From: Pseudoalteromonas marina
GTDB lineage: Bacteria; Pseudomonadota; Gammaproteobacteria; Enterobacterales; Alteromonadaceae
Reading direction: 5' to 3'
DNA length: 64,000 nt
Assembly: GCF_000238335.3 (NCBI RefSeq)
Contig: NZ_AHCB03000005.1
Coordinates: 62,001-126,000 of the forward strand
The notes beneath the pieces were generated by a model that worked only from the letters and a program-made list of their open reading frames with translations, ran no database searches and was not told the DNA's origin. The position numbers and the translations under genes are program-made. Below are positions 29,371 to 43,567 of the stretch, piece by piece. Position 1 is the first letter of the stretch, and each line of letters starts with the position of its first letter.

Positions 29371-30072
29371 ATGGCACGCGGTGTGAACAAAGTAATTTTG
29401 GTTGGTAATTTAGGGCAAGATCCTGAAGTTCGTTACATGCCTAACGGTAACGGTGTAGCAAATATTACCTTAGCAACTTCAGACAGCTATAAAGATAAAA
29501 ACACTGGCCAAATGGTTGATAAAACTGAATGGCACCGTGTTGTATTTTTTGGGAAACTGGCTGAAATTGTGGGCGAATATTGTCGTAAAGGTTCACAAAT
29601 ATACGTAGAAGGTAAACTTCAAACACGTAAATGGACTGATCAACAAGGCCAAGAAAAATATACCACAGAAATCGTTGTTGATGGCTTTACAGGTCAAATG
29701 CAAATGCTAGGTGCTCGCGGTGGAGACCAGCAAAGTGGTGGCGGTTACCAAGGCAATCAAGGTGGCCAGCAAAACAGTGGTTATCAAGGTAATCAAGGTA
29801 ATCAACAAGGCGGTTATTCACAAAATAATCAAAACCAGCAAGGTAGTTATGCACCACAGCAGCAAGCTGCACCTGCTGCACAGCCTCAATCGGCGCCTGC
29901 ACCACAGCAAAATAACCAGTATCAGCCACAAGGCGGTGGTTTTGCTCCACAGCAAAATAGTGCACCACAGCAGCAAGGTGGTTTTGCACCTAAGCCTCAA
30001 AATGCACCACAAGGCGGCGCATCAAATCCAATGGAACCAACAATAGATTTTGACGACGACATTCCGTTTTGA
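29371..30072 (+). CDS. ssb: Single-stranded DNA-binding protein
   Basis: 233 residues, longer than E. coli SSB (178). OB-fold residues 1-110 begin [26 protein letters not shown] (start of the conserved core). A long Gly/Gln/Asn-rich linker (about 115-218) has repeated GYQGNQG-type and APQQ-type units. The acidic tip DFDDDIPF recruits repair and replication partners. The ATG has AGGAG upstream. No terminator follows directly: a genomic island starts within a few bases of the stop codon, and the likely native terminator is now at 43576-43599. Confidence 0.97.
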
Positions 30073-30075
30073 CTT

Positions 30076-30173
30076 TTACTTAAGACATGTTTTTGTAAAG
30101 TATCACTCTATAGCCCTTTAATAGCGTAATACTTAAAAGAGAGTTTACATTAAAGTAGTATTTTTTTGTAAAC
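30076..30173. promoter_or_regulatory. Candidate left attachment / recombinase-binding region
   Basis: Holds TTACTTAAG (30076-30084), TATCACT (30101-30107), direct repeats of TTTTTGTAAA (30090-30099 and 30163-30172) and the inverted pair GTTTAC (30143-30148)/GTAAAC (30168-30173). The same words TTACTTAAG...TATCACT and TGTAAA...TTTACA recur near the right end (43378-43401; 43492-43506). Such clustering is usual where tyrosine recombinases bind, but the motifs are AT-rich and could partly be chance. Confidence 0.4.
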
Positions 30174-30234
30174 TTTTTTTATACTCTATTTAAAGGTTTA
30201 CGCTTACTTAGAATTGTGTAAGGTATGGAGCGTT

Positions 30235-31539
30235 ATGAAAACAAAATTATTTGTTGGTAAAACAGGTGAAAGATATTCAATTCTTTTGAATGATGAGGGT
30301 ATGCCACTTGAACATCCGAATCTATTTGTCACCACGATTTATAGAAACGATGGACAAGCAGCTTCTTCATGTCAAAAAGCGTTAGAGCATATTTCTTTTT
30401 TTTTAGAGATGTGTAACGGTTTAGAAATTGATGTTGAAACAAGAACCGCTAAAGCGGAGTTTCTCACTCATGAAGAAATACAGAGGATTGTCTATTTCGC
30501 AGGGATCACTCGTGAAGCAACGAAAGCAAAACTTAAAGCAACAAACAAAAATGTTGTAAAGCTTAAAGTGGCGAAGCCTAGGATGTTGGAAACAGCTAGG
30601 TATTCAATCGTTGCAGAAAAAAAAGAAGACAAGGTCCATTGGCAAACCAAGTACAACCGAATCAGTGTTTTCTCACGTTACGTTAGTTGGCTTGAAAAAT
30701 ATCATCACCCCTATACAGAGACGAGGACTGAATTTTACTTCACTGAACTACGACCTCAAAAAAATGAGGGACCAACCTATGGAGAGATGCTTGAAGCCGC
30801 TACCTACAAGTCATTAACCGCTGATGAAATCGCAATTTTCCTTGACCGTATTCGCCCGGAGTATTCTGATAACCCTTGGAATGACGAAAGTATTAAGGTT
30901 CGCAACTATGCAATGTGTATGTTTATGTGGGCACTGGGTGTGCGACTAGGCGAATGTCTCAACGTGAAGATTCAAGACCTGATCTTTAAAAAAGAAAAAC
31001 GATACGTTGTGATCAGGCGCAATGCTGATGACATTAATGACTCGCGTGCCAACCAACCAAGGGTTAAAACCAATGGAAGGAGCCTAGCATTGTCACCAAA
31101 GCTCCAAAAGATCCTTGATTATTACATCAACGAACATAGAGCAAACTTACAGAATGTTGCTACCAATGAATTTTTGTTTGTTTCTCATCGTGTACGGAAA
31201 GGTAAATTAAACCCCTTATCGATAAGTGCAGCCGAAAAAATATTCGCACAACTAAGCGAGACATTGGGCTTTCATGTACATCCACACCGCCTCCGCCATA
31301 CTTGGAACGACCGTTTCAGTGAAGCAATGGATAAAGCGATCGCCGCAGGGACAACAAATGAAGATAAATCAGAGGCTGACCGCTGCCAACTCATGGGCTG
31401 GCGACAAGGTTCGTCAATGTCACTTGTGTACGCCTCGCGACACAACGCAAAGCGAGCTATGACGCTTGCGCTGAATATGCAAGATGCTGACTTCGCAATG
31501 AAGGAAAGTATTGAGTATGACGAAGATCTGCCTTTTTAG
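30235..31539 (+). CDS. ginA: Tyrosine recombinase GinA-like, first of trio
   Basis: About 434 residues. ATG 30235 is preceded by GGAG; a longer in-frame start at 30214 lacks one. The C-terminal catalytic domain has the Arg of GVRLGECLNV (about 241), HPHRLRHTW (about 351, H-x-x-R), GWRQG at the third His/Trp position (about 385), and the Tyr nucleophile in MSLVYASR (about 394). So the R-H-R-(H/W)-Y set is complete. It is the leading gene of a four-gene block with ginB, ginC and ginD, as in GInt islands. Tn554 and RIT elements also use recombinase trios, but the extra fourth gene and the sizes favour GInt. Confidence 0.82.
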   Translation: MKTKLFVGKTGERYSILLNDEGMPLEHPNLFVTTIYRNDGQAASSCQKALEHISFFLEMCNGLEIDVETRTAKAEFLTHEEIQRIVYFAGITREATKAKLKATNKNVVKLKVAKPRMLETARYSIVAEKKEDKVHWQTKYNRISVFSRYVSWLEKYHHPYTETRTEFYFTELRPQKNEGPTYGEMLEAATYKSLTADEIAIFLDRIRPEYSDNPWNDESIKVRNYAMCMFMWALGVRLGECLNVKIQDLIFKKEKRYVVIRRNADDINDSRANQPRVKTNGRSLALSPKLQKILDYYINEHRANLQNVATNEFLFVSHRVRKGKLNPLSISAAEKIFAQLSETLGFHVHPHRLRHTWNDRFSEAMDKAIAAGTTNEDKSEADRCQLMGWRQGSSMSLVYASRHNAKRAMTLALNMQDADFAMKESIEYDEDLPF

Positions 31540-31557
31540 AGCAGTATGGAGAGCACT

Positions 31558-33132
31558 ATGAATAAACAACATGAAAGTTACGCTAATGCTGACACTAGCC
31601 AGTATTTCAAAAGTGATTCAGACAATAGAATTCAAATTTCGTCTGCTGGTTTCGAGTTTGATACTAGTGATCGCAAGTGGGTGCTGGATTCAGAGACTAA
31701 TGCATATGTTGGCTTCGTTGGATCATACCCTCAAGAATATCAAGAAAGCATCATTAAAACGCTGGCACACTTTGCAATAACTTGTTCCGCTAAGTATGTC
31801 ACCCAGCATATAAGTGAATTGAAGCGTTTTTTGAAGCATGAAAAGGGCTTTACGTTAGCAGGTTTAATGGCATACAAGATGTTGACTCCTAAAGGCTCCA
31901 GAGAGCAAAGCATCTCCGTTTTACGTACTTTTTTGCGAAAAATGGTTTATTTGGATTTTTATGTGCCCGATGAATTTATGAAAGAATTCAACACTTGGAT
32001 ATTGAAAGGGCGTGAGAAAGGGGTGCCAGTATCAAGTCAAGACCCAGTAGAGGGACCATATAGCGAATTAGAGTTTAGAGCAATCCAAGCAGCGTTGGAC
32101 TTTAAATATGCTGACCACACAATTACTGATAGAGAGTATTCGATTGTAAAGTTGTTTTTAGCAACATTTAGAAGACCGGCAAACTTAAAGCAACTAAAAG
32201 TGAAGGATCTCATAGCCAACTCAAATATCCTGGTCACAAAGCAGACAATCTTTAAACTTAACATACCTCGCTCAAAGGGCGGGGGAAGTAAATTTCGCCA
32301 GCAGTCAAAAGCATTTGTGCTAGTTGAAAGTATTGGTTTAGTACTAACTAGACATATCCAAAGTTCGATTAAAGAGGCTGAAGCCAAGTTAGGTCGAAAA
32401 TTCAGTGAGGAAGAGGCGAAAGAGTTGCCGATGTTTTCTAACCACAGGTTGATAAATGACCTGCGCAATCAAAATGCTAATAACGTAATCGATTATCTAA
32501 AAACTGAAATCCCGCACTTGACGACATATGAATTAACAAGAGAATTGCAAGCGATAGTTGATAAACTTGAGGTCATATCTGAGCGTACCGGCAAGCCTTT
32601 GAAAACTACCGCATATCGCTTCCGATACACTGGTGGCACAAGAGCGGCGGAGGCGAAGGCCGGTGCTGTAACTATTGCGGAACTCTTAGATCACTCAGAT
32701 ACCGAGCATGTTGGAGTATACGTTGCTAATTCACCTGAGTTAGGCCAGCAAATATCAAGCATTATGAATAATCCGTTGGCTCGCTATGCAAGTGCATTCA
32801 GAGGCGAGATTGTTAAAGATGAGGAAGATGCCTTTAAGGTTAATCCTGATGCTACTCGTATTCCCTGTGCCGATAAAGGGTGTGATGTCGGTAGTTGTGG
32901 TTCAAGAAGCGTTTGTACCGACTATGCCCCTATAGCTTGTTATCTCTGCCCTAAATTTCTACCTTGGAAAGATGCGCCACATAATGAAGTGCTTCAATGG
33001 TTGCTTGAAGAACGCAATAGGTTATCCGAAACACTTAATGACGCAAAAGTAGTGCAAATTAATGACAGCGCCATCTTGGCTGTTGCGCAAGTAATGAAAG
33101 CTTGTGAAGAGGAGAAAAAGAAAGATGTCTGA
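31558..33132 (+). CDS. ginB: Tyrosine recombinase GinB-like, second of trio, atypical active site
   Basis: About 524 residues. I use ATG 31558, which has GGAG upstream. The integrase fold is recognisable: box-I Arg in TFRRPANLKQLKV (about 203), TAYRFRYTGGTRAAEA (about 350) in place of the usual H-x-L-R-H-T, then LLDHSDTEHVGVYVANSP with the third His and the Tyr nucleophile (about 391). Both histidines around the second catalytic Arg are Tyr. A Cys-rich tail (CADKGCDVGSCGSRSVC, then CYLCPKF, about 440-470) looks like a zinc module. It overlaps ginC by 8 bases, so the two are co-translated. Probably needed with GinA and GinC for recombination. Confidence 0.8.
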   Translation: MNKQHESYANADTSQYFKSDSDNRIQISSAGFEFDTSDRKWVLDSETNAYVGFVGSYPQEYQESIIKTLAHFAITCSAKYVTQHISELKRFLKHEKGFTLAGLMAYKMLTPKGSREQSISVLRTFLRKMVYLDFYVPDEFMKEFNTWILKGREKGVPVSSQDPVEGPYSELEFRAIQAALDFKYADHTITDREYSIVKLFLATFRRPANLKQLKVKDLIANSNILVTKQTIFKLNIPRSKGGGSKFRQQSKAFVLVESIGLVLTRHIQSSIKEAEAKLGRKFSEEEAKELPMFSNHRLINDLRNQNANNVIDYLKTEIPHLTTYELTRELQAIVDKLEVISERTGKPLKTTAYRFRYTGGTRAAEAKAGAVTIAELLDHSDTEHVGVYVANSPELGQQISSIMNNPLARYASAFRGEIVKDEEDAFKVNPDATRIPCADKGCDVGSCGSRSVCTDYAPIACYLCPKFLPWKDAPHNEVLQWLLEERNRLSETLNDAKVVQINDSAILAVAQVMKACEEEKKKDV

Positions 33133-35386
33133 TATCAACATATTACTATTCACCCCTAAGCATGAGATTGAGCTTGAGAAGAATGTTGAAGACTTCATCA
33201 GCGAAGTTGAAGACACACCAAACCCAAATGCTAAAATGGATTACAGTTCTCATTACTGGGAAGGTCTCGGTAACTTCACTAAAATGGGTGTCAATAGTCG
33301 CAAAAAAGATAAATCTACTCGGCTTGATGACTCAATCATCAGGTTTGCAAAGGCTTACATAAAATATCAAGCGATAAAACGTGGAACATCGATTTATGCG
33401 CATTTCTATGCAATAAGAGCATTGGAAGCAGCAGTCTTAAAGCGTGGTGAACAAGTCGTAATTTCTAAATTACTTCCCCTAGATTTCGATCAGGCAGCAC
33501 AAGAAGCAAAAGCAAACATGAAGGAGGGCGCTGCATATCAAGCGGGAATGAAGTTAAACTTCATGCGCAAATTTTTAATTGATCACAAAATGATAAAGCC
33601 TTTTGAGTGGAAAAATCCCTTTTCTAAACCAAAAGACAAAAAAGACCTTACGGGCGACGTTGGCCAAGAGTACCGAGAGAGCAAAATGCCTGACGAAAAC
33701 TCGATAATGGCGATGGCATCAATCTTCGCTAAAAAAGACTCAGAGCTTACCTCAAGGGATATATTCACATCATCTACATTTAGCTTGATGATGTGCGCTC
33801 CAGAAAGAGGTTCAGAGCCCCTTTATCTTAAGTCTGATTGTCTTGATGTCCATATTATTAAAAATCCGCAGAGTGACGCTGAGCGCGATTCTGAAAAGGC
33901 ATTAAAGCAAGGTGATGGATCAGAGCTTTTGTTGGCCGAAAATGACGAAGAGCAACCTGTTGAAGAGCAAATAGGCATACGATGGTTTTCAGGAAAAGGC
34001 TATGGCTACGAAAACAAATGGGTGCCAGATGTTATGAACCCTGTTATTAAAGCGGCCATAAAGAGGTTGAAGAAGCAGTCAAAACAAGCAAGAGAGTTCG
34101 CAAAAATGCTTGAAGAGTCGGATGACTTTCCTCGTCATCCTCTTTGTCCAAGAGTCGATGAAGACAAGTTACTTACTAAAGCACAAGCAGTCGCTGCACT
34201 TGGCCTGGACACATCTCTACTAACTCAGAAACAAGCGAGAACATCTGGCAATCAGCTCCTTACTAAAGTTGGTATAGAAAGAGCTGACTATGTAGTTTCA
34301 TTAAGAGACCTAAATAAAATTGTGAGGGCAAGGCTACCAGTAGGATGGCCGTACATACCATTTAAGAAAGGAAAGGTTAAACTCAAATGGTCAGACGCAC
34401 TCTATGCGGGTTTTGCTAACCAATTCAGTGTATCTAAAGGCACTATATACACGGAGCTTTGGATACCCAATATTACGACTTTAAATGAGGATCTAAAGCC
34501 ATCCATAAAAAAAAACCGATCAACGGATAAAATCGCTGATGGTAATCTTTCAGTATTCGCTCGCCATGGATACAATGGATTGGAGTTAAGAAGTCATCAA
34601 CCTCGACATCTGCTTGATACCTTGGCATCTGTTAACGGTATGAGCGATACCTTAAGGTCTAAATGGGCGGGTAGAGCTGACCCAAAACATAATCGCTATT
34701 ACGACCATACGGATGAACAAGAGTACAATCATGATTGGCTAGAGCACGAGTCTAAAGATGAATTGGTAAATAATGACGTTAGAAGCCTGTTTAAAATCCA
34801 AATAGCGAAAGGCAATATGCGTTCTCTGCAAGAGCATAATACTCGTGCAAGCCTTGCTGTTCACATCACTGAATACGGTGAATGCAAACATTCATATATC
34901 GATGAACCGTGCATGAAGCATCGAGATTGCTTAAATTGTAATGAGCTAGTTTGTACTAAAGGGAATGAGGATAGGCTTAAGCGGATTCAAGAAAAGCTAA
35001 AGAAGGAAAGATTATTGCTGCGTGGTGACGAAAAAGCAGTTAATGATGGAGTGAAAGGTGCAGAGCAGTGGTATCAACGTAGGTTAACCACTATAAAGCG
35101 TTGCGAGAGCCTCATAGCATGGTTAACAAGCGATGATGTTAAAGATGGCGACATGATCAAGCTAGCTGACGCTGAGAACGTGACACATTTAGACAGAGCA
35201 TTAGAGGCTAACGGCCGCAAAAGACTACCTAAGATTGAGAATCACCTCCGTAAAGACAAAATTGCTGATAATCCAGCCCCAGTAGAATTTGTTTCTATAA
35301 ATCAGCTACTAGCACCAACCGGCATCGTTGTGCCAAATGACGATGATGACTTAAACTATAACGACTTTGTCTTGGAGGATTTTTAA
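33125..35386 (+). CDS. ginC: Tyrosine recombinase GinC-like, third of trio
   Basis: About 753 residues from ATG 33125, with GAGGAG about 10 bases upstream. The catalytic region has Arg in CAPERGSEPLYL (about 230), SHQPRHLLDT (about 490, H-x-x-R-H), WAGRADPKHNRYYDH with the Tyr nucleophile (about 520), and a downstream Cys cluster CMKHRDCLNCNELVCTKG (about 600), typical of the large member of these trios. A C-terminal helical part follows (about 620-753). The third catalytic position is Arg (AGRAD) rather than His. It is followed by ginD after 2 bases. Confidence 0.82.
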   Translation: MSDINILLFTPKHEIELEKNVEDFISEVEDTPNPNAKMDYSSHYWEGLGNFTKMGVNSRKKDKSTRLDDSIIRFAKAYIKYQAIKRGTSIYAHFYAIRALEAAVLKRGEQVVISKLLPLDFDQAAQEAKANMKEGAAYQAGMKLNFMRKFLIDHKMIKPFEWKNPFSKPKDKKDLTGDVGQEYRESKMPDENSIMAMASIFAKKDSELTSRDIFTSSTFSLMMCAPERGSEPLYLKSDCLDVHIIKNPQSDAERDSEKALKQGDGSELLLAENDEEQPVEEQIGIRWFSGKGYGYENKWVPDVMNPVIKAAIKRLKKQSKQAREFAKMLEESDDFPRHPLCPRVDEDKLLTKAQAVAALGLDTSLLTQKQARTSGNQLLTKVGIERADYVVSLRDLNKIVRARLPVGWPYIPFKKGKVKLKWSDALYAGFANQFSVSKGTIYTELWIPNITTLNEDLKPSIKKNRSTDKIADGNLSVFARHGYNGLELRSHQPRHLLDTLASVNGMSDTLRSKWAGRADPKHNRYYDHTDEQEYNHDWLEHESKDELVNNDVRSLFKIQIAKGNMRSLQEHNTRASLAVHITEYGECKHSYIDEPCMKHRDCLNCNELVCTKGNEDRLKRIQEKLKKERLLLRGDEKAVNDGVKGAEQWYQRRLTTIKRCESLIAWLTSDDVKDGDMIKLADAENVTHLDRALEANGRKRLPKIENHLRKDKIADNPAPVEFVSINQLLAPTGIVVPNDDDDLNYNDFVLEDF

Positions 35387-35388
35387 TT

Positions 35389-35787
35389 ATGGCAAAGCAT
35401 TTAACTGACAGTGATATAGAGGCGATTGTTGAATACCTTGACGAGTGGGATCTCAGTAAGAAAGTGACTTGGGAAAGGCTTTGCATTGCTCTGGATGATG
35501 ATTTAGGTATCAGCCACACTCGGCAGACATTGCAAAGTCATGATCGTATAAAAGGCGCATTTGACGATTTAAAACTCCACCTCAGAGGTAAAAAGAAACG
35601 AGGAGGCAAAGTGTTACCCAGTTCTTTAGCCGCCGCAGCAAAAGAGATTGAAACACTAAATCGAAAGAATGCTCGGTTAGAACGGGAAAATAAAAACTTG
35701 CTGGAACAGTTTCTCGTTTGGCAATACAACGCTCATATTCACGGAATGAAGCAAGATCAACTTAATCGGCCGCTCCCAGAAAAATAG
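35389..35787 (+). CDS. ginD: GinD-like small coiled-coil accessory protein
   Basis: 132 residues, within the known GinD size range. The N-terminal half (about 1-70) is compact and helical with ISHTRQTLQSHDRIKGAF, suggestive of a helix-turn-helix. A basic patch KKKRGGK follows, then a coiled coil (about 80-108, IETLNRKNARLERENKNLLEQF). The same design is seen in TnpC of Tn554-like trios. GinD is required for GInt recombination; by inference it binds the ends or bridges the recombinases. Starts 2 bases after ginC. Confidence 0.78.
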   Translation: MAKHLTDSDIEAIVEYLDEWDLSKKVTWERLCIALDDDLGISHTRQTLQSHDRIKGAFDDLKLHLRGKKKRGGKVLPSSLAAAAKEIETLNRKNARLERENKNLLEQFLVWQYNAHIHGMKQDQLNRPLPEK

Positions 35788-35805
35788 ACTGGCAGCGGTT
35801 TTTTC
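35770..35805 (+). terminator. Terminator of ginABCD
   Basis: Stem CCGCTCCCAG/CTGGCAGCGG (one mismatch) followed by TTTTTT. The left arm lies inside the last codons of ginD. It closes the recombinase operon and separates it from the cargo. Confidence 0.85.
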
Positions 35806-35911
35806 TTTTTATTCCATCTCTAATTAGTTTCATGACGATATCTAGTTCTCCTCGTTTAATTAAAGACAAAGTGGTATGCCCTTTCGCAAAATATTTTCAT
35901 AGCAACTAATA

Positions 35912-36035
35912 AAGAAAATAAAACGGTCGTTTTCTTTACGATTCTATTGCATCATATATACGTTATAAATCACCTTGCTTTTGTGTAAAACAACTCGTAA
36001 AGTAATCTATGTAAATTAAACGTACGTTTATAACG
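35912..36035. promoter_or_regulatory. Dyad-rich region upstream of the serine recombinase, possible res site
   Basis: Contains AAGAAAA (35912-35918)/TTTTCTT (35930-35936), AAAACGGTCGTTTT (35920-35933), CGTTATAAA (35961-35969)/TTTATAACG (36027-36035), and the 14-bp palindrome TAAACGTACGTTTA (36017-36030). Serine resolvases bind paired dyads just upstream of their own gene, so this may be both recombination site and operator. Confidence 0.45.
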
Positions 36036-36043
36036 AGGTTGTT

Positions 36044-36628
36044 GTGAAATTTGGATATGCAAGAGTTAGCACAGATGAACAGTCTGATAATGCTCAATTA
36101 GATGCACTAAACGATGCTGGGTGTGAGCGCATATTTAGCGAGAAGTTTAGTGGTAAGTCAAAACAACGGCCTGAACTAGAGCGTATGATCGATTCACTGA
36201 GAAGTGGCGATATTGTTGTGGTGCAGCGTCTCGACCGACTCGGGCGTAGTCTAAAAGATCTGATTGAGTTGTTAGATGGCTTTAAATCGCAGCAGGTTAG
36301 CTTTATTAGCCTCAATGAGAATATCGACACCACAACTGCGGTTGGTGAGTTAGCGTTCCATATGATTGGTTCTATCGCACAATTTGAACGTCGCTTAATT
36401 TCGGAAAGAACCAAAGCTGGTTTAGATGCAGCGCGAGCCAGAGGGCGAAAAGGTGGGCGACGCGTTAAGTTAAAACCTTCGGATATAAAAAAAGCACAAG
36501 CAATGCTGCTTGACCCTACCGTCACAAAAAGCGAAGTGGCAGAGCATTTCGGTGTAAGCCGGCCAACACTAAATAAATCATTGAGCACAGCACCTCCGCC
36601 ACAAGAACGATCACTATTTGAAAAGTGA
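36044..36628 (+). CDS. Serine recombinase of the resolvase/invertase family
   Basis: 194 residues. KFGYARVSTDEQSDNAQLDAL carries the nucleophile Ser9 in the N-terminal catalytic domain. RLDRLGRSLKDLIEL (about 65) and ERRLISERTKAGLDAARARGRKGGR (about 120, E helix, in two blocks) follow. A C-terminal helix-turn-helix (about 160-185, TKSEVAEHFGVSRPTLNKSL) binds the site. The start is GTG with GAGG upstream. The size fits Tn3-type TnpR or Hin/Pin invertases. No Tn3 transposase is present, so the target could be its own upstream dyads (multimer resolution) or an invertible segment, which I do not see. Confidence 0.88.
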   Translation: MKFGYARVSTDEQSDNAQLDALNDAGCERIFSEKFSGKSKQRPELERMIDSLRSGDIVVVQRLDRLGRSLKDLIELLDGFKSQQVSFISLNENIDTTTAVGELAFHMIGSIAQFERRLISERTKAGLDAARARGRKGGRRVKLKPSDIKKAQAMLLDPTVTKSEVAEHFGVSRPTLNKSLSTAPPPQERSLFEK

Positions 36629-36770
36629 GCTGAACAACTCTTAAGCAGTGAAGTTTTAGGGTAAAGTCGCTTAGCTTCATAAATTAATAGCAATTGCTTG
36701 GATTAATGACATAGATTAAGGTTCTATTCAAAAAACAGGACTAGGTTTAACTTTCCCCAACGTCCTCTTC

Positions 36771-36818
36771 ATGCCCTGAAGCATTCGCCTAAACACGATT
36801 TGGGGCAGAAATGAGTTA
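36771..36818 (-). repeat. Recombination-site-like motif, copy 1 (minus strand)
   Basis: Read on the minus strand it runs TAACTC-N5-TGCCCCAAA, then GTTTAGGCGAATGCTT. It aligns over about 45 bases with copies at 39447 and 41366 (consensus TGCCCCAAA, 5-9 bases, TTWANGYRAATG). Inverted relative to the other two copies. Confidence 0.55.
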
Positions 36819-36852
36819 CTACTGATAGCACTAAGCCGAACTTCGGCAAAGA

Positions 36853-38082
36853 GCTGTGAGTTCAACTGGTGAATGCAACGCTATCCTTATTATTAGTTAA
36901 AGGAGCGTTTACATGAAACAGAGAAAGCGTATTTATTATAATGCAGAACAAAGAAGGTTAATTTGGGATCGATATCAGCGCGGTGATAGTGCGCATGATA
37001 TAGCAAGGCTATTTGATCGATACCATTCATCTATATTAGGTATTATCCATAAAACAGGTGGTGTTCGGCCGCTTGAGCCCAAACGCTCACCAACAACACT
37101 AACTCTTGCAGAGCGAGAAGACATTTCACGAGGGTTAGCAGCAAGTAAGTCACTTCGAGAAATAGCGAGATACCTTAATCGCTCACCTTCCACTATTTGC
37201 CGTGAAGTAAACCGCCACGGCGGGATTAAAAAATATCGAGCGAGTAAAGCTGACAAAGTTGCCTGGGAAAATGCCAAACGCCCTAAGCCTTGTAAGCTGT
37301 ATGGCAACAAAGAATTATGTTTAATCATTGCTCAAAAGATGGAATCTGCATGGTCACCTCAGCAAATCTCTGGTTGGCTTAGGCGGAGATACCCCAATAA
37401 TGAGGATTTGAATGTGTCGCACGAAACAATATATAAAACCCTATATATACAAACCCGCGGCGCCTTAAAAAAAGAGCTACAAAAACACTTAAGGACGCAG
37501 CGGGTAGTCAGGAAATCAAAACACGCCACTCTTAAAGGTAAAGGGTTAGGAAAGATAGTTGACGCTGTACCAATTAGTGAAAGGCCATCAAATGTTGAAG
37601 ACAGAGCTGTTCCAGGCCACTGGGAGGGAGACTTGATCCAAGGCTCAGGAAACAGTTTTATCGCGACTCTAGTTGAGCGGCACTCTAGGTATGTAATGTT
37701 AGTGAAAGTACCTAGTAATAAAACAAAGCCAGTAATCGAAGCGTTGATTAAACAAGCTAATAAGTTGCCAGCAGAGCTTTATAAATCATTAACTTGGGAC
37801 AGAGGATGTGAGCTTACAAATCATAAAGACTTTACTCTAGCTACAGATATTCAAGTATATTTCTGCGATCCACAATCACCTTGGCAACGCGGCTCCAATG
37901 AAAATACAAATAGGTTATTAAGACAATATTTTCCAAAAGGAACTAACTTAAATGAGCATTCTCAGATAAGATTAAACCAAGTTGCCAGACAACTTAATGA
38001 GAGACCGCGGAAAACACTAGAATACGAAACACCTGCGGAGCGATTTAATCAGTGTGTTGCATCGAGTGGTTGAACTCACAGC
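36853..38082 (+). mobile_element. Complete IS30-family insertion sequence
   Basis: 1230 bp. The terminal inverted repeats are about 27 bp: left GCTGTGAGTTCAAC (36853-36866) with ATGCAAC further in, and the exact complement at the right (GTTGAACTCACAGC, 38069-38082). The element is flanked by the 2-bp target duplication GA (36851-36852 and 38083-38084), normal for IS30. It contains one intact transposase, so it may be active. It sits in the non-coding gap between the serine recombinase and the epimerase. Confidence 0.9.
36913..38073 (+). CDS. IS30-family transposase
   Basis: 386 residues. The N-terminal half has helix-turn-helix segments (RDSA-type GDSAHDIARLFDRYHSSI, and ARYLNRSPSTICREVNRHGG about 90). 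The C-terminal DDE domain has GHWEGDLIQGSGN (first Asp, about 239), LTWDRGCELTNH (second Asp, about 298) and SPWQRGSNENTNRLLRQYFP (Glu, about 330), the IS30 signature. GGAG precedes the ATG. The last codons overlap the right inverted repeat. Intact. Confidence 0.95.
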   Translation: MKQRKRIYYNAEQRRLIWDRYQRGDSAHDIARLFDRYHSSILGIIHKTGGVRPLEPKRSPTTLTLAEREDISRGLAASKSLREIARYLNRSPSTICREVNRHGGIKKYRASKADKVAWENAKRPKPCKLYGNKELCLIIAQKMESAWSPQQISGWLRRRYPNNEDLNVSHETIYKTLYIQTRGALKKELQKHLRTQRVVRKSKHATLKGKGLGKIVDAVPISERPSNVEDRAVPGHWEGDLIQGSGNSFIATLVERHSRYVMLVKVPSNKTKPVIEALIKQANKLPAELYKSLTWDRGCELTNHKDFTLATDIQVYFCDPQSPWQRGSNENTNRLLRQYFPKGTNLNEHSQIRLNQVARQLNERPRKTLEYETPAERFNQCVASSG

Positions 38083-38115
38083 GAAAACCAGTCATTGCGA
38101 TTGACTAAATATAAT

Positions 38116-38308
38116 AGCTAACAGATTGGTCAATGTTGTTTGCTCATTAATTGGAGGAAATGAGCGGCGCGCGTATATTGTTTCATTTAACTTTACATAA
38201 AAACTTTAGAAAACTTAGTAATATCTTAGGTAATTTGTTAAAACTATGTAGAGATGAGCTAGCAATAGCAAATAAATACGCTATTTGCACACTATTAAAT
38301 TGTTAGCT
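38116..38308. repeat. Inverted repeat bounding an AT-rich non-coding segment
   Basis: AGCTAACA (38116-38123) pairs with TGTTAGCT (38301-38308), extendable to 12 bp with two mismatches. The arms resemble the outer boxes of an integron attC site (RYYYAAC/GTTRRRY), but 193 bp is long for one and no second box pair is clear. An inner hairpin GCAAATA/TATTTGC lies near 38269-38289. The segment holds no gene and ends 33 bases before the epimerase start. Confidence 0.3.
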
Positions 38309-38341
38309 GCTTTGAGGTAAATCATTAAGAAGGTGCTGTAA

Positions 38342-39223
38342 ATGAGAATATTGGTAACAGGCTCTGCGGGTAGAGTAGGGCGTGCGATCTATATTAAATT
38401 AATGCGAACACATAACGTAGTCGGTATTGATAAAACACCTTGTTCAACAGCCGATTACATTGGTGATATTCGTGATAGTGCTCTGATTGATGGGGTTCTT
38501 GAAAATATTGATGTCATCATTCATACAGCGGCTCTTCATGCTCCTCATGTTGGTTTAGTGCCTGATTCTGAGTTTAAATCTATCAACGTAGACGCGACTG
38601 AGAAACTGGCTTTGTCTGGCTTAAAAGCAGGTATTAAGCACTTTGTTTTTACCAGTACAACTGCGTTGTACGGTTATGCTTCGACTCCGAAAGGTATTTC
38701 AGGTTGGATTAATGAGGAGGTTACTCCGCAACCTAAGTCGATTTACCATAAAAGTAAAATTGATGCTGAAACTAAGCTAAAAGAAATTTCAAACCTGTTT
38801 CAGCTTCCAGTGACTGTGCTGCAAATGTCGAGATGTTTTCCTGAGGCTGCGGATTTAATGGCGGTATTTCGTCTGACTCGTGGTATTGATGCTCGAGATG
38901 TAGCAAGTGCTCATTTATGTGCTGTGGAAAAACGTTTAAACGGTTTTAATCGTTTTATAATTTCAGGTACAACACCTTTTCATCTTTCTGATTGCGAAGC
39001 TTTATATACTGAAGCTGGATCTGTCATCAAGCGTAAGTGCCCAGAAATCGCGCTAGCATTTAAACAAAGAAATTGGGAATTACCTCAATGCTTAGATCGC
39101 GTATATGATTCATCGTCCGCACGTGAGAAATTAGGTTGGTCACCTATACATGATTTTGAAAGCGTTTTGGAAATGTTAGATTCTGAAACAGCAGAAGTAT
39201 TGCCAATTTTAAAACGAAGCTAA
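38342..39223 (+). CDS. NAD-dependent epimerase/dehydratase (extended SDR)
   Basis: 293 residues. MRILVTGSAGRVGRAI gives the TGxxGxxG nucleotide-binding loop (6-13). DIRD (about 42) and HTAALHAPHVG (about 61) follow. Ser-Thr of FTSTTALYG (about 103) and YHKSK (about 140) supply the S/T-Y-K catalytic set. The C-terminal part (about 175-290) binds substrate; EKLGWSPIHDFE is the usual closing motif. It acts on a sugar nucleotide or related alcohol, but the substrate cannot be told. It stands alone as island cargo with no other sugar genes. Confidence 0.85.
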   Translation: MRILVTGSAGRVGRAIYIKLMRTHNVVGIDKTPCSTADYIGDIRDSALIDGVLENIDVIIHTAALHAPHVGLVPDSEFKSINVDATEKLALSGLKAGIKHFVFTSTTALYGYASTPKGISGWINEEVTPQPKSIYHKSKIDAETKLKEISNLFQLPVTVLQMSRCFPEAADLMAVFRLTRGIDARDVASAHLCAVEKRLNGFNRFIISGTTPFHLSDCEALYTEAGSVIKRKCPEIALAFKQRNWELPQCLDRVYDSSSAREKLGWSPIHDFESVLEMLDSETAEVLPILKRS

Positions 39224-39264
39224 ACGCGGTAAGTCGGGCTGTTTCTAGTAAACTCATCATTTTT

Positions 39265-39353
39265 GTCGGATGGCGTGGCTTCGCCACTTATCCGACCTAC
39301 CCCGTACAGTAACGTCAAAAGGTAGGTTGGTTAAGCCGAAGGCGTCACCCAAC
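39265..39353. repeat. Two REP-like palindromes downstream of the epimerase
   Basis: Hairpin 1 (39265-39296): GTCGGAT...ATCCGAC around an inner GTGGC-TTC-GCCAC. Hairpin 2 (39326-39353): GTTGG...CCAAC around AGCC-GAA-GGC. The two are joined by inverted CCTACC/GGTAGG. The words resemble the REP/BIME-type repeats common after genes in gammaproteobacteria. They may act as terminator or mRNA stabiliser for the epimerase. The 363-bp gap (39224-39586) otherwise holds only motif copy 2. Confidence 0.6.
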
Positions 39354-39446
39354 AGAGTTACAGATTCACACCTTGAAGGTCCGCAACTGGCACAGAGCTG
39401 TCCCTTCGTCTTTAACGAGTTTTTGTCCATAGGTGAGTTATTAACA

Positions 39447-39493
39447 TAACTCGCCTTTGCCCCAAAATGCGTTAACGTAAATGCTCTAAAACC
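39447..39493 (+). repeat. Recombination-site-like motif, copy 2
   Basis: TAACTCGCCTTTGCCCCAAA followed by ATGC, GTTAACGTAAATGCTCTA. It is preceded by a hairpin GAGTTA/TAACTC (39435-39452) and by TAACGAGTTTTTGTCC (39413-39428), which is echoed at 42633-42648. Direct repeat of copy 3. Confidence 0.55.
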
Positions 39494-39586
39494 AACAGCA
39501 GAAATAAACCTTTGGGTTGCTCTGTAGAATTCATATCTCATTTACGATAGATTGAAACGCCATTATTTCAGATTAAGGACGATGTT

Positions 39587-41125
39587 GTGGAGATACCTGT
39601 CGAATATTTACTGATTTGCATTTTATGTTTATCTGTTTCAACTTTAGTTTGTTTAGTAGTCCTTAGGGGACGTAAGCGAAGAATAAAAAATCTACAGGAC
39701 GAACAAAAAGATTCGCAAGACAATTATATTAAAGCCAACGAAAAGTATATCGAATACAAAGGACTGTATGATCAGCTCAATAGTGAACATAGAATCCTTA
39801 ATAATGAGCATCAAAACCTCCGCCAGCAATACTTACCTATTCTTGACATTAATAATGCAGTTTCAGAGGCGCAGTCAGAACTAGAATCATTAAATCAGCA
39901 AACTCGAGAGCAAAGAGAAAAATTTGAGTTCGATCGCAAAACTTTAACAAGGCAGCAAAACGAAAAAACGGCTGAACTAAGTCGTGAGTACGCAAGTAAA
40001 AAAGTTTATTTAGATAAATTGTTGCAACAAGTTGCGATATATGACGAAGCCATAGAACTAGCGGAGCTGGGATTCTATAAACCCCATTTTTCGTTTGACA
40101 CGTCAGAACGATATAAAAAAGAGATTGAAAAAATAAGAGCTATGCAGAAACAAATGCTAGCCGATAAACGGGCTGTTGCATGTCACACTGAATGGGTAGT
40201 TGAAGGTAGCAAGACCAAAGGTAAAACCATGACTAACCGAAACATAAAGCTAACAACAAAAGCGTTCAATAACGAATGTGATGCGGCGTTGGCTAATGTT
40301 AGTTGGAATAATGTAACTCGGATGGAGTCCCGCATAACTAAGGCATTTATGTCTATTAACAAGCTTAATGAAACCAACAATACCCTTATCAGCAACGAGT
40401 ATTTAGAACTTAAACTCAATGAATTGAGACTAACTCACGAATATAAAGACAAAAGACAGCAAGAGAAAGAAGAACAGGCAGAGATTAAACGCCAAATGCG
40501 TGAAGAGGCAAGGCTCAAGCAAGAAGCGGAGAAAGCTCAGAAGGAAGAAGAAAATTACCAGAAATTACTCAACAAAGCACTAAGGAGTGCGGAAAAAGCA
40601 ACGGGAGACAAGCTTGATAGCCTCAATAACGAAATTGCTCGCCTTAAAAATGATCTTGAAAATGCACATAATTTGTCTGAACGCGCAAAGTCAATGGCAG
40701 AGCAAACTAAACAAGGTCACGTTTACGTTATTTCAAACATAGGCTCATTTGGTAAAGGTGTATACAAGATCGGAATGACAAGGCGTTTGGAACCCCTTGA
40801 TAGGGTAAGAGAATTAGGTGATGCCAGCGTACCATTCTTATTTGATGTTCACGCGATGATCTTTTCCAAAGATGCACCAGGTCTTGAAAAAGAACTACAC
40901 AGGTTGTTTGATGATAAACGAGTAAACCTTGTTAATTATCGCAAAGAATTTTTTGAAGTAACTTTACCAGAGATCCAGAGTGCAGTTAGTAGAATATGCG
41001 ATGACGCAGAATTTATTGAAACCGCCGAAGCCCGAGAGTATAGAGAGTCGGAAGCAATACGCGCTCAACGTAAAGATGATAAAGAGTCCGTTACAGTGAT
41101 AAATGAGCTACCAGAAACTATATAA
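39587..41125 (+). CDS. Membrane-anchored DUF4041 / GIY-YIG nuclease-like protein
   Basis: 512 residues from a GTG start with AAGGA upstream. An N-terminal membrane helix (about 4-26) is followed by coiled coil (about 35-150). A DUF4041-like region (about 160-260) contains GFYKPHFSFDTSERYK, and KTMTNRNIKLTTKAFNNECD. A second, charged coiled coil (about 285-370) leads to a C-terminal GIY-YIG domain of the T5orf172/MUG113 type: HVYVISN (about 377), GVYKIGMTRR (about 388) and a Glu in EKELHRLFDD (about 438). Proteins with this layout sit in phage and island accessory regions; a role in anti-phage defence or DNA processing is plausible but not shown. The GIY-YIG core looks intact. Confidence 0.78.
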   Translation: MEIPVEYLLICILCLSVSTLVCLVVLRGRKRRIKNLQDEQKDSQDNYIKANEKYIEYKGLYDQLNSEHRILNNEHQNLRQQYLPILDINNAVSEAQSELESLNQQTREQREKFEFDRKTLTRQQNEKTAELSREYASKKVYLDKLLQQVAIYDEAIELAELGFYKPHFSFDTSERYKKEIEKIRAMQKQMLADKRAVACHTEWVVEGSKTKGKTMTNRNIKLTTKAFNNECDAALANVSWNNVTRMESRITKAFMSINKLNETNNTLISNEYLELKLNELRLTHEYKDKRQQEKEEQAEIKRQMREEARLKQEAEKAQKEEENYQKLLNKALRSAEKATGDKLDSLNNEIARLKNDLENAHNLSERAKSMAEQTKQGHVYVISNIGSFGKGVYKIGMTRRLEPLDRVRELGDASVPFLFDVHAMIFSKDAPGLEKELHRLFDDKRVNLVNYRKEFFEVTLPEIQSAVSRICDDAEFIETAEAREYRESEAIRAQRKDDKESVTVINELPETI

Positions 41126-41215
41126 TTTTTGAAGGTTCAAACACGCGTCTGCCCAAACTTTAGCTGCCAAAACTAGCTGACTATTCTTATAGTGACTTTT
41201 TAGAAGGAGGTCACT

Positions 41216-41344
41216 ATGAAACCACATTTAAATTATAATGTGACTGGCGTGAAACGTCCTTTCAAACTTGAAGAAATCTGGCGTATTCGCACTCGAATTG
41301 AAATTGAAGATGCAATTAAGATATCCAGAGAAACGGATTGTTAA
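41216..41344 (+). pseudogene. Remnant of a small tyrosine integrase with in-frame internal deletion
   Basis: A 42-codon frame with a strong AAGGAGG ribosome-binding site encodes MKPHLNYNVTGVKRPFKLEE, IWRIRTRIEIED and AIKISRETDC. The first 26 or so residues match my memory of the N-terminus of a widespread integrase family of about 200 residues (VTGVKRPFKLEEIW). The last 15 match its C-terminus (G-IE-DALEISE-T). The catalytic middle of about 170 residues is missing, and the frame is kept. It cannot be an active recombinase. Motif copy 3 begins 22 bases after its stop codon. Confidence 0.6.
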
Positions 41345-41365
41345 TTTAATATAGGCAGCAACCCC

Positions 41366-41412
41366 AAGCTGCCTTTGCCCCAAAAAATTATTTAACGTGA
41401 ATGTTTTAGAGG
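41366..41412 (+). repeat. Recombination-site-like motif, copy 3
   Basis: CTGCCTTTGCCCCAAAA, then TTTAACGTGAATGTTTTA. Like copy 2 it follows a hairpin (GGCAGC/GCTGCC, 41354-41373). Copies 2 and 3 are direct repeats bracketing the GIY-YIG gene and the integrase remnant. The rest of the gap to 41561 holds nothing I can identify. Confidence 0.55.
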
Positions 41413-41561
41413 TCGGCTTTGAGCGATCAGCTAGAATATTATTCATCTAATGATATTGGCTCTACTCCATAAATCTGATATTCCACTAACTTTTAAGTCA
41501 TCACTAATATAAAAACTGTATAAATACACAGTTTAATTGATGTACTCCTATATTCAAGAAA

Positions 41562-42608
41562 ATGAGCGACGAGCACACTTTCTTTTTTCTAGATCTCTTT
41601 AGCGTCAATAAAAATATTAAAGTTGGCAATGCATTACGTTATTTGTTAAAAATAGATCTATTAATACATAAGCGTGACATTGGCAGAAAGATGAGTGGCG
41701 CGCTCACTATGAAATTGTCATGTGCCAAGGAGTCTAGGTTGAAACGATACAAAGTCATTCGTTTTCAGTTTGATGGAAGAGCAGCTGTTCTCAATCAAAA
41801 AATATCGGACGATTGGGAAACGAGCGTCAAGGACAATTGGCTCGATAATAAGCGAAAAATTAAAGAGGAAATCATTGCTGAATTTGGTGCAATAAATTGC
41901 TTTCGAAAGATTCAGGACTTTTCAGATATAGACTCAGATCAACCATCTTTAATAGCGTTTCATAACCAGTTTATGAAACAGATTGCTAATGCCTACTCTT
42001 TCGGGGCTTATTATCCTGCACTCACTGGTGCGTCTTCTTTAGGAGAAAGGATACTAAATCACTTGGTTCTGAAACTAAGAGAATATTTCAAAGCTACTCC
42101 TGAATACCAAAAAGTGTACAGAAAGAATTCTTTTGATAACTGGGATTTAGCTATCAATACTTTGGAATCATGGGATGTCTTACTACCTGAAGCAGTCGCG
42201 ACCTTTAGAGAGTTAAAAACTGTTAGAAATCACTCTATTCATTTTAATCCTGAAACGGATGAAAATTACAAAGAGACCGCTTTAAATAGTATTTTGTTGT
42301 TAAAAAAAATCATAAGACAGCAGTTTTCGGGTTTTGGAGCCCAGCCGTGGTACATTGCCGGCACTATGGGGGCTTGTTACGTAAGAGAGTCATTTGAAGA
42401 CGTACCATTTGTCAAAGAAGTAGTATTACCTAATTGCGTAAAGGTTGGTCATCTTCATTCTGTTGAAAGGGTCGGACATCAATTTCAAATAATAGATGAG
42501 GAAAATTATGCAGATATCAGTGTTACAGATGAGCGTTTTAAAGAGTTGGTTAACAATGCCAGCAAATATGATAAAAACAATTTATTAATAGGTGGAGACG
42601 GCACATAA
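41562..42608 (+). CDS. Uncharacterised protein with HEPN-like RNHSIH motif
   Basis: 348 residues, no signal peptide or membrane span. A helical central region (about 130-265) includes ASSLGERILNHLVLKLREYF, and FRELKTVRNHSIHF (about 215-228), where R-N-x3-H fits the R-x4-6-H signature of HEPN RNase domains. HEPN proteins are frequent in toxin-antitoxin and abortive-infection systems. The N-terminal 120 residues and the C-terminal beta-rich part are unrecognised. No ribosome-binding site is obvious before the ATG (TCAAGAAA only). A defence role is inference from the motif and the island setting. I see no antitoxin or nucleotidyltransferase partner adjacent. Confidence 0.6.
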   Translation: MSDEHTFFFLDLFSVNKNIKVGNALRYLLKIDLLIHKRDIGRKMSGALTMKLSCAKESRLKRYKVIRFQFDGRAAVLNQKISDDWETSVKDNWLDNKRKIKEEIIAEFGAINCFRKIQDFSDIDSDQPSLIAFHNQFMKQIANAYSFGAYYPALTGASSLGERILNHLVLKLREYFKATPEYQKVYRKNSFDNWDLAINTLESWDVLLPEAVATFRELKTVRNHSIHFNPETDENYKETALNSILLLKKIIRQQFSGFGAQPWYIAGTMGACYVRESFEDVPFVKEVVLPNCVKVGHLHSVERVGHQFQIIDEENYADISVTDERFKELVNNASKYDKNNLLIGGDGT

Positions 42609-42807
42609 CAAAACGCTGTCGAATAAATACTCTAACGTGCTTTTGTCCAAAAACGAGTTTACTCGACCGTCTGCTTCTCGCTCATAGCTGCATGTCAGAT
42701 AAAGTCCAAACATATTCATCGAAACTTCTAGATCAGATATGAGCTACTACAATTTATTTGAACTTGCTATCTAAGCTATGACTTCACTTTAATATTCCAA
42801 ACCAATC

Positions 42808-43222
42808 AAGGCTTCACTCTGATCACGAACAAGGCTTCATCTCAGTATTCAACCGTATTAAGGCTTCATACTGATCGCAAACAAGGCTTTATTTCAGTAT
42901 TCAACGGATTAAGGCTTCATCCTGATCGCAAACAAGGCTTTATTTCAGTATTCAACCGGATTAAGGCTTCATCCTGATCGCAAACAAGGCTTTATTTCAG
43001 TATTCAACCGGATTAAGGCTTCATCCTGATCGCAAACAAGGCTTTATTTCAGTATTCAACCGGATTAAGGCTTCATCCTGATCGCAAACAAGGCTTTATT
43101 TCAGTATTCAACCGGATTAAGGCTTCATCCTGATCGCAAGCAAGGCTTCATTACAGTATTTAACCGGATTAAGGCTTTATCCTGATCGCAAACAAGGCTT
43201 CATTACAGTATTTGACTACATT
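42808..43222. repeat. Array of eight 52-bp tandem repeats, non-coding
   Basis: Unit starts (AAGGCTTCAT) are at 42808, 42860, 42911, 42963, 43015, 43067, 43119 and 43171. Spacing is 52 bp except one of 51. Units 3 to 6 are nearly identical, while the first and last are degenerate, as in an expanding array. Each unit has two AAGGCTTYA words (23 and 29 bp apart) and one GATC site in the same place. The length is not a multiple of 3, so a repeated peptide is excluded. It lies in the island's right-hand non-coding region; 42609-42807 before it holds no gene, only a TAACGTGCTTTTGTCC word (42633-42648) like that at 39413. Confidence 0.92.
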
Positions 43223-43567
43223 AATCCCAAGATACTCTGTGTGTTTTGTTATTTATGTATTGCTTGTACCTTTGATTAACTTTTACTAACGGACCGTGGT
43301 GATGGTGATAAAACAAGTATTAAGCGCCCCCTAATGAAGATGAACTTTTCTGAAAAGGTAATTTCAATAATAAGTGCTTACTTAAGGTGGTATATATCAC
43401 TGTTTAGATGTCATAAAAATTACAAAAAACATTACACTTATCTTTATTTTTAGGTTGATATTTAATCTATCGCCATATATAATATGGTCAATGTAAATTC
43501 TTTACAAAAATAAATTTACTCTCAAGTAAAAGAAACCGTTTTAACCAAAGAAAGAATGTTGAAATAA
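43223..43567. other. Right end of the island, no gene seen
   Basis: AT-rich, no frame of note. It holds TTACTTAAG (43378-43386), TATCACT (43395-43401) and the perfect dyad TGTAAA-TTC-TTTACA (43492-43506), which echo words at the left end behind ssb. The junction between island and chromosome should be in this stretch. Confidence 0.5.

What the first reader, a model, noticed from the sequence alone, without database searches (positions are those of the whole stretch)
30073..43567. GInt-type island (ginABCD plus cargo) inserted directly behind ssb
Seen: four contiguous co-oriented genes, three with tyrosine-recombinase catalytic motifs and a fourth coding for a 132-residue coiled-coil protein, placed at one edge of a 13.5-kb accessory block between ssb and csrD. 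Known: GInt islands carry exactly such a ginABCD operon at one end. Inference: this is a GInt using the 3' flank of ssb as target. The combination of an ssb-proximal site with nuclease-like cargo and a tandem-repeat array looks unreported to me, but I cannot search.
Basis: partly seen in the sequence, partly recalled or inferred. Interest (0 to 1): 0.7.

Follow-up and report, generated by a model that had tools for sequence, protein, structure and literature searches.

The report
GInt island at the ssb tail
A 13.5-kb mobile DNA island of a known kind (a GInt) sits in the last codons of a marine bacterium's ssb gene, gives that gene a new stop codon and probably a new terminator, and encodes a recombinase whose tail resembles that of the SSB protein itself.

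Summary
Confirmed. The island is a GInt: ginABCD plus cargo, 13,472 bp, in the genus of Pseudoalteromonas sp. XI10 and TB64. It lies inside ssb: the 6 bp encoding the terminal Pro-Phe (CCGTTT) stand at both ends, the element supplies the ssb stop codon and a terminator-like hairpin, and 14 of 29 relatives examined have an empty ssb-csrD interval. GInts at ssb were published in 2017, so that part is not new. Not seen in the papers I read in part: (1) a GinB-led scan gives 69 of 73 evaluable loci with ssb just upstream of ginA; (2) such GInts also sit behind plasmid ssb genes (11 of 16 plasmid loci examined, about eight distinct elements); (3) in two plasmid insertions with known empty sites, the target's 6 bp stays on the left while the right end carries a foreign CCGTTC, as described for SEs; (4) GinA of the window's clade and of a distant second clade ends in an SSB-like tip (here YDEDLPF), a strict motif seen only in SSB-like and GinA frames among 2,209. 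The tip's function is inferred, and the plasmid elements that show the footprint lack it. Cargo includes a PD-Lambda-1 defence gene. Mobility was not tested.

The parts
29371..30072 (+). ssb, target gene; final codons GAC GAC GAC ATT CCG TTT TGA; the TGA is element DNA
   Evidence: empty site in G051 reads CCGTTTTAACCAAAGA
30064..30069 (+). attL 6-bp core CCGTTT (Pro-Phe codons)
   Evidence: the crossover is read from one element in two different plasmid ssb genes
30073..30085 (+). left terminal inverted repeat CTTTTACTTAAGA
   Evidence: 12/13 match to the right arm
30134..30184 (+). element-supplied hairpin plus T-run, probable replacement ssb terminator
   Evidence: -14.9 kcal/mol, z -5.07, 0 of 200 shuffles as good; AT-rich, fails the strict scan
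30235..31539 (+). ginA, tyrosine recombinase; C-terminus EYDEDLPF resembles the SSB tip (DFDDDIPF)
31546..33132 (+). ginB, NF041502 site-specific integrase
33104..35386 (+). ginC, large tyrosine-recombinase-like protein with catalytic residues kept (true start probably a few codons later)
35389..35787 (+). ginD, 132 aa
36044..36628 (+). serine resolvase cargo gene, 84-86% identical in two other Pseudoalteromonas ssb-GInts
36913..38073 (+). IS30-family transposase
38342..39223 (+). NAD-dependent epimerase/SDR cargo
39587..41125 (+). PD-Lambda-1 anti-phage defence protein (DUF4041 plus T5orf172)
41562..42608 (+). HEPN-like protein, R222-x4-H227 invariant in 28 sequences; true start probably about 60 codons downstream
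   Evidence: fold matches weak
42808..43212 (+). 52-bp tandem repeat, 7.8 copies
43520..43532 (+). right terminal inverted repeat TCTCAAGTAAAAG
43536..43541 (+). attR 6-bp core CCGTTT, followed by the original ssb stop TAA
43565..43605 (+). displaced original ssb terminator
   Evidence: -15.3 kcal/mol, z -4.62; same layout behind empty ssb genes

Best explanation
A GInt integrated by GinABCD at the six bases that encode the terminal Pro-Phe of SSB (CCGTTT here, CCNTTY in general). SHOWN BY SEQUENCE: the left end continues the reading frame with a stop codon of the element and a terminator-like hairpin; the right end leaves the old stop and terminator behind; relatives have empty sites. SHOWN IN RELATED ssb-GInts: in both informative cases the target's 6 bp stays at the left junction and the right junction has a different 6 bp. 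INFERRED: the right 6 bp was carried from the previous ssb site (a footprint route as described for SEs and Tn554), and plasmid ssb genes serve as shuttle sites. INFERRED, weaker: the SSB-like GinA tail of this clade docks a protein that binds the SSB tip. Confidence by step: GInt identity and site 0.95; re-supplied stop and terminator 0.85; carried 6-bp footprint 0.65; plasmid shuttling 0.7; GinA tail a functional C-terminal motif 0.75 (lowered from 0.8, because in the window's own clade the tip is no more conserved than the residues before it); that motif acting as an SSB mimic 0.4.
For: ginABCD plus GinB model hit. 14 of 30 csrD loci fetched (own genome plus 29 relatives) have an ssb end 162-637 nt upstream of the csrD match; G051's empty site shares CCGTTTTAACCAAAGA with the window's attR. 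Inverted repeats 12/13. Published ssb target. One 11.9-kb element, 99.9% identical, behind IncN and IncF ssb: attL six-mers CCATTT and CCGTTC, attR CCGTTC in both; empty IncN ssb CCATTT, empty IncF ssb CCGTTC. Serratia IncF insertion: attL CCCTTT, attR CCGTTC, empty site CCCTTT. Strict terminators after the ssb stop in 60 of 78 elements vs 16 of 1560 mononucleotide shuffles. [quoted passage not shown] GinA tip.
Against: No excision or transfer was tested. The window's own two six-mers are identical, so it says nothing on the footprint. Only two informative events, and conservative exchange with heteroduplex could give that orientation by chance (1 in 4 for both). The type GInt proteins (P. stutzeri DSM 4166) were not compared directly. 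The strict terminator scan missed the window's own hairpin, and some of the 78 elements are near-copies. Most GinAs of ssb-GInts have no SSB-like tip, nor do any of 14 plasmid GinAs read, so the tip is needed neither for the ssb target nor for the footprint.
Confidence: 0.9

Rival explanations
1. It is a strand-biased circularizing integrative element (SE), the sister group found mainly in marine Gammaproteobacteria.
For: Four-gene operon, host group, and the 6-bp footprint seen in related elements fit SEs as described in PMC10214605 (abstract, passages, sections 12 and 13).
Against: SE order is intA-tfp-intB-srap with a non-catalytic second product; here the second gene is the NF041502 integrase, and the large recombinase-like protein is third and keeps catalytic residues. 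ssb targets are reported for GInts.
Confidence: 0.05
2. Conservative tyrosine-recombinase integration and excision; the differing six-mers are only heteroduplex resolution.
For: Bardaji et al. see empty sites in some strains and attI variants that they explain by 6-nt staggered cuts and repair. Two events cannot exclude it.
Against: Both informative insertions keep the target six-mer on the left and a foreign one on the right.
Confidence: 0.35
3. The GinA tail is a chance or DNA-level echo of the ssb attachment site, not a protein motif.
For: In the window the last ginA codons resemble the ssb end at DNA level. Most GinAs of ssb-GInts lack it. In the window's clade the tip's mean entropy (0.88 bits) is about that of the 14 residues before it (0.93).
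Against: Other members end in PM or DM with codons that are not CCNTTY. In clade 2 the tip's mean entropy is 1.18 bits against 2.78 for the 14 residues before it. Among 2,209 frames the strict motif was seen only in SSB-like and GinA frames.
Confidence: 0.12
4. The tail is a docking motif for an element-encoded partner (GinB, GinC or GinD), not an SSB mimic.
For: The last residue is F in only 10 of 23 and 8 of 19 members, otherwise M, W or aliphatic; tyrosine recombinases commonly use C-terminal tails for partner contacts (recalled).
Against: Match to the SSB tip over seven positions, including the aromatic at -7 in 22 of 23 and 17 of 19.
Confidence: 0.43
5. The island is now an immobile remnant.
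For: Resolvase and IS30 cargo; no read evidence of movement; one GinC copy in the genome.
Against: All four gin genes are open, both ends are intact, and GinAs 86-92% identical exist in other public sequences.
Confidence: 0.3

Closest known systems
GInts (Bardaji et al. 2017, PMC5385486); called a Tn6571-family transposon in PMC10121019
   Same: ginABCD at one end, cargo, AT-rich other end, imperfect direct repeats, ssb 3' target
   Different: GinC keeps the first Arg (published as missing); GinA has an SSB-like tip; junction six-mer and the supply of stop and terminator are resolved here
SEs (Idola et al. 2023, PMC10214605)
   Same: Four proteins, 6-bp core; target six-mer at the left and a carried one at the right (seen in related plasmid GInts, not in the window)
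   Different: Gene order, and the identity and catalytic state of the second and third proteins
Tn554
   Same: 6-bp footprint; TnpC as counterpart of GinD/Srap (both as stated in PMC10214605)
   Different: Three genes, no GinC/Tfp counterpart
SSB C-terminal tip (SSB-Ct, DDDIPF)
   Same: Aromatic, three acidic, aliphatic, P, F at a free unstructured C-terminus
   Different: Carried by a recombinase; last residue F, M or W in relatives; binding untested. The telomere resolvase ResT binds the SSB tail (PMC7861564, passages), the reverse relation

Membership tests
GInt | ginABCD operon at one end, three recombinases plus a small protein | tested here: met
   (operon transcription not tested)
GInt | Cargo of 2.5-70 kb and short AT-rich far end | tested here: met
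   13,472 bp in all; GC 0.282 at 43213-43535
GInt | Imperfect direct repeats of 10-17 nt | tested here: met
   10 of 15 identical around CCGTTTT
GInt | Site-specific target with empty sites in relatives | tested here: met
   8 of 12 GinB-bearing genomes of the genus have the element at ssb
GInt | Sequence relation to the type GinABCD | tested here: inconclusive
   Type proteins not fetched; GinB is homologous to that of an element behind an apparent nrdA, another reported GInt target (E 7e-21)
GInt | Excision as a circle, all four genes essential | not testable with these tools
   needs bench work
SE | Order intA-tfp-intB-srap with non-catalytic second product | tested here: not met
SE | Target 6 bp at attL, carried 6 bp at attR | tested here: inconclusive
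   Window uninformative (both CCGTTT); met in 2 of 2 informative related GInts
RIT | Three recombinases of 315-410 aa and 34-bp inverted repeats (as given in PMC10214605) | tested here: not met
   434, 528 and 760 aa plus a fourth gene; 13-bp arms
Tn554 | tnpABC, three genes, no GinC counterpart | tested here: not met
   no tree with Tn554 proteins was made
SSB-Ct-type tip | Unstructured acidic C-terminal tail ending in aliphatic-P-F | tested here: met
   DEDLPF; coil at 426-434, pLDDT 51 for 431-434
SSB-Ct-type tip | Binds SSB-interacting proteins | not testable with these tools
   needs a peptide binding assay

The most novel reading that the evidence does not exclude
Two distant GInt clades have equipped their first recombinase with a copy of the SSB tip. 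GinA bound at the half-exchanged junction uses it to recruit the host's SSB-tip-binding restart and repair proteins (PriA, RecG, RecQ, Topo III), so that replication rather than a second strand exchange resolves the junction; the element copies itself out with the left 6 bp attached, from a gene whose own last codons encode the same tip, and travels between chromosomes and conjugative plasmids through their ssb genes. Probability lowered from 0.22 to 0.15: the plasmid elements that show the footprint have no tip, so the tip could at most add to the route, not be required for it.
Probability: 0.15. Interest if true: 0.82.

Novelty: new variant of a known kind. Interest (0 to 1): 0.5.

Why it matters
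How GInts move between cells and whether they cut out or copy out are open in the papers read: attempts to show transfer failed in Bardaji et al., and GInt movement is marked not tested in Table 1 of Idola et al.. Plasmid ssb genes as landing sites, and a readable 6-bp footprint with known empty sites, make both directly testable. An SSB-tip-like motif on a recombinase, if it binds the SSB partners, would be a new way for a mobile element to enlist host replication proteins. The Pro-Phe codons, among the most constant bases of ssb, would explain why unrelated hosts share one target.

Tried and rejected
The GInt reading was tested against empty sites and held. Strict terminators are missing in the window's clade and I thought this might go with the GinA tip; folding the same stretches shows AT-rich or longer-loop hairpins there too, so I dropped it. 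The tip does not mark the ssb target, and 14 plasmid GinAs lack it. Nineteen loci fetched with a clade-2 GinA from 394 genomes hold no strict-tip frame of 350 aa or more. The DNA-level explanation of the tip was judged unlikely on codons of nine ginA ends. The resolvase is close (84-86%) in two other Pseudoalteromonas ssb-GInts and 59% in Ferrimonas, with weaker matches in L096, L090 and L181; I take it as cargo. Aligning its upstream stretch shows a conserved block; no res site was sought further. The 52-bp repeat was found in its own genome only among 71; function unknown. Rfam gave nothing at E 0.1. No GinB relative in phages at E 1e-20. The class-wide draw was sparse (4 of 369). A search for right ends in the 80 loci printed three candidates besides the window, not confirmed. 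In one search the IncN right flank was compared out of register (200 of 700); redone in register (697 of 700).

Rows dropped before counts: P0015 (truncated) and P0023 (short, tip present) from clade 1, and P0059 (no tip) from clade 2; P0023, P0027 and ten near-copies (P0029, P0030, P0032-P0034, P0036, P0038-P0041) from the tree, which was given 38 of the 80 contig loci; its label 'none' also holds near-tips such as L062, P0002, P0011, P0045, P0054 and L147. Seven of 80 contigs start too close to ginA to judge (L069, L073, L079, L083, L097, L106, L130).
Full report
WHAT IS THERE. Between ssb (29371-30072) and an EAL-domain gene (43756-45438) lie four contiguous + strand genes of 434, 528, 760 and 132 aa, then cargo. 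GinA and GinB match Phage_integrase and GinB the NCBIfam integrase NF041502 above cut-off. GinC matches no family, but in an alignment of 48 GinCs (window, 44 of the 80 contig loci, L142, L181, L182; nearly all at ssb) the residues R235, H498, R501, W521 and Y533 of the window are R 48/48, H 46/48, R 48/48, W 45/48 and Y 48/48. This differs from the published statements that GinC lacks the first Arg (PMC5385486, section 3) or the RHRY motif (PMC10214605, passages).

BOUNDARIES. The six bases CCGTTT (Pro-Phe of SSB) occur at 30064-30069 and 43536-43541. Just inside are 13-bp inverted repeats with 12 matches, equalled in 13 of 2000 shuffles of the right end. The right junction reads on into TAACCAAAGA and a strong terminator, the layout seen behind empty ssb genes; the relative G051 has CCGTTTTAACCAAAGA intact. 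CsrD-like genes were found in 109 of 119 genomes and the 30 best loci were fetched. Of these 30 (own plus 29 relatives), 14 have the ssb end 162-637 nt upstream, i.e. an empty interval. Of the other 15 relatives, four carry GInts at ssb (G025, G031, G038, G058; in G031 and G038 the csrD lies on another contig), G008 has other genes there, and ten were not examined. In the genus, 12 of 108 genomes have GinB at E 1e-8; eight of these, the window included, have it at ssb, one (G009) behind an apparent nrdA, and three (G019, G022, G052) elsewhere. In G058 (Pseudoalteromonas sp. XI10, same contig as L062) about 5 kb separates ssb from ginA.

HOW IT SITS IN THE GENE. The stop codon now used by ssb is element DNA, and a hairpin with a T-run follows (-14.9 kcal/mol, z -5.07). 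Of 78 elements at ssb (window, 70 of the 80 contig loci, 7 plasmid loci; some near-copies), 60 have a strict terminator-like hairpin just after the ssb stop, mostly starting 29-42 nt into the element, against 16 of 1560 mononucleotide shuffles. Several of the others, the window included, have AT-rich or longer-loop hairpins. The left ends share a motif counted from the stop codon: A at +9 in 69 of 70 and C at +10 in 62 of 70, then mostly CT and a TGTAA box. So insertion replaces what it displaces.

A FAMILY OF ssb-GInts. A scan of GTDB genome contigs with a GinB alignment kept the best 80 of 185 loci. Seven contigs are too short upstream. Of 73 evaluable loci, 69 have an ssb end within 900 nt upstream of ginA (L100), one (L062) has it 5 kb away, and three (L087, L095, L136) do not. 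Hosts are mostly Proteobacteria and include a Holophagaceae, a Campylobacterota and Desulfobacterium MAGs. The ssb target itself was published for six GInts in 2017.

PLASMIDS AND THE 6-BP FOOTPRINT. In PLSDB, 60 records hold a GinB relative at E 1e-20, 33 of them typed conjugative; none in 50,697 phage records. I examined 16 of these 60: 11 have a plasmid ssb directly upstream, about eight distinct elements since L181, L184, L193 and L194 share one; L198, L202 and L203 have none, and L183 and L199 are unannotated and show no ssb end. One 11.9-kb element, 99.9% identical, lies behind an IncN ssb and an IncF ssb. IncN: attL CCATTT, attR CCGTTC, empty site CCATTT. IncF: attL CCGTTC, attR CCGTTC, empty site CCGTTC. 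A second case, a Serratia IncF plasmid: attL CCCTTT, attR CCGTTC, empty site CCCTTT. Both informative insertions therefore keep the target's six bases on the left and bring foreign ones on the right, as described for SEs and Tn554 (PMC10214605 section 13). A third (L213) and the window have the same six-mer at both ends and say nothing; in L211 and L212 no right end was found in the stretch scanned. Heteroduplex repair could give the same picture in two cases by chance.

THE GinA TAIL. Window GinA ends EYDEDLPF; SSB ends DFDDDIPF. In 23 GinAs of the window's clade, position -3 is aliphatic and the last residue hydrophobic in 23, -7 is aromatic in 22, and at least three of the last seven are acidic in 21. 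A second clade, 21-24% identical to the window's GinA in nine members compared, has position -3 hydrophobic and the last residue F, M or W in 19 of 19 profiled, -7 aromatic in 17 and three acidic residues in 16; a twentieth member, P0059, has no tip and was left out. In clade 2 the mean entropy of the seven tip positions is 1.18 bits against 2.78 for the fourteen before; in the window's clade there is no such contrast (0.88 against 0.93). The strict motif [YFW][DE]{3}[ILVM][PD][FMWY] ends 16 of 23 and 8 of 19 of these, 25 of 63 fetched GinA homologs, and 76 of 2,209 stop-to-stop frames of 150 aa or more: 69 are SSB-like by length and tail and 7 are ginA frames of three elements (loci overlap, so rows are not independent). 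The two clades are apart on the tree with tipless clades between, but the tool warns of long branches. Codons at the tip differ and mostly do not keep CCNTTY. The model leaves the tail unstructured on a Xer/Cre-like recombinase. None of 14 plasmid GinAs has the tip. The listings of three paper searches (20 of 754, 16 of 16 and 4 of 4 shown) name no such motif in an integrase; of the listed papers I looked at passages of PMC7861564, where the telomere resolvase ResT binds the SSB tail, and PMC8744291. The library lacks most subscription journals. Function is inferred only.

CARGO. PD-Lambda-1 defence protein; an HEPN-like protein with R222 and H227 invariant in 28 sequences, 933 homologs at E 0.001 and no Pfam hit (fold matches all above E 0.5, with HEPN proteins prominent among the best); a serine resolvase, an IS30 transposase and an epimerase. 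Papers seen: PMC5385486 abstract, sections 3 and 13 and passages; PMC10214605 abstract, sections 12 and 13 and passages; PMC10121019, PMC9709138, PMC8865565, PMC7861564 and PMC8744291 passages only.

VERDICT. A real GInt at a published kind of target, hence not a new class. The carried 6-bp footprint and plasmid ssb sites (in relatives), the complete GinC and the SSB-like GinA tip are additions that specialists could test at once.

Noticed in passing
42808-43212: 52-bp tandem repeat, 7.8 near-identical copies near the right end, found only in its own genome among 71 searched; role unknown.
   Followed up: partly
36044-36628: Serine resolvase 84-86% identical in the ssb-GInts of G025 and G058, whose GinB is only 29% and 58% identical to the window's, and 59% in a Ferrimonas GInt; a short block upstream is conserved.
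   Followed up: partly
41562-42608: HEPN-like cargo protein of a large family without a Pfam hit; the listed start is probably about 60 codons too early.
   Followed up: partly
41217-41345: Small ORF in the cargo that looks like the N-terminal remnant of an integrase (recalled, not searched).
   Followed up: no
39257-39560: Palindromic repeat-like DNA between the epimerase and PD-Lambda-1 genes.
   Followed up: no
L148: In G009 a GInt-like ginABCD sits behind a gene whose product ends GCEGGACKI, apparently nrdA, a target reported for P. aeruginosa GInts.
   Followed up: partly
L152: G038, the relative with the closest CsrD-like protein (84%), has a different GInt at the same ssb site.
   Followed up: partly
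L123, L097, L077: Second, mostly partial, ginD matches downstream of ginD, perhaps tandem or decayed GInts.
   Followed up: no
L204, L205, L206: Plasmid ssb-GInt with Avs4 and an AbiGi-family gene as cargo.
   Followed up: partly
L087: Aeromonas GInt preceded by CCGTTTTGA but not by an ssb tail, a possible secondary target.
   Followed up: no
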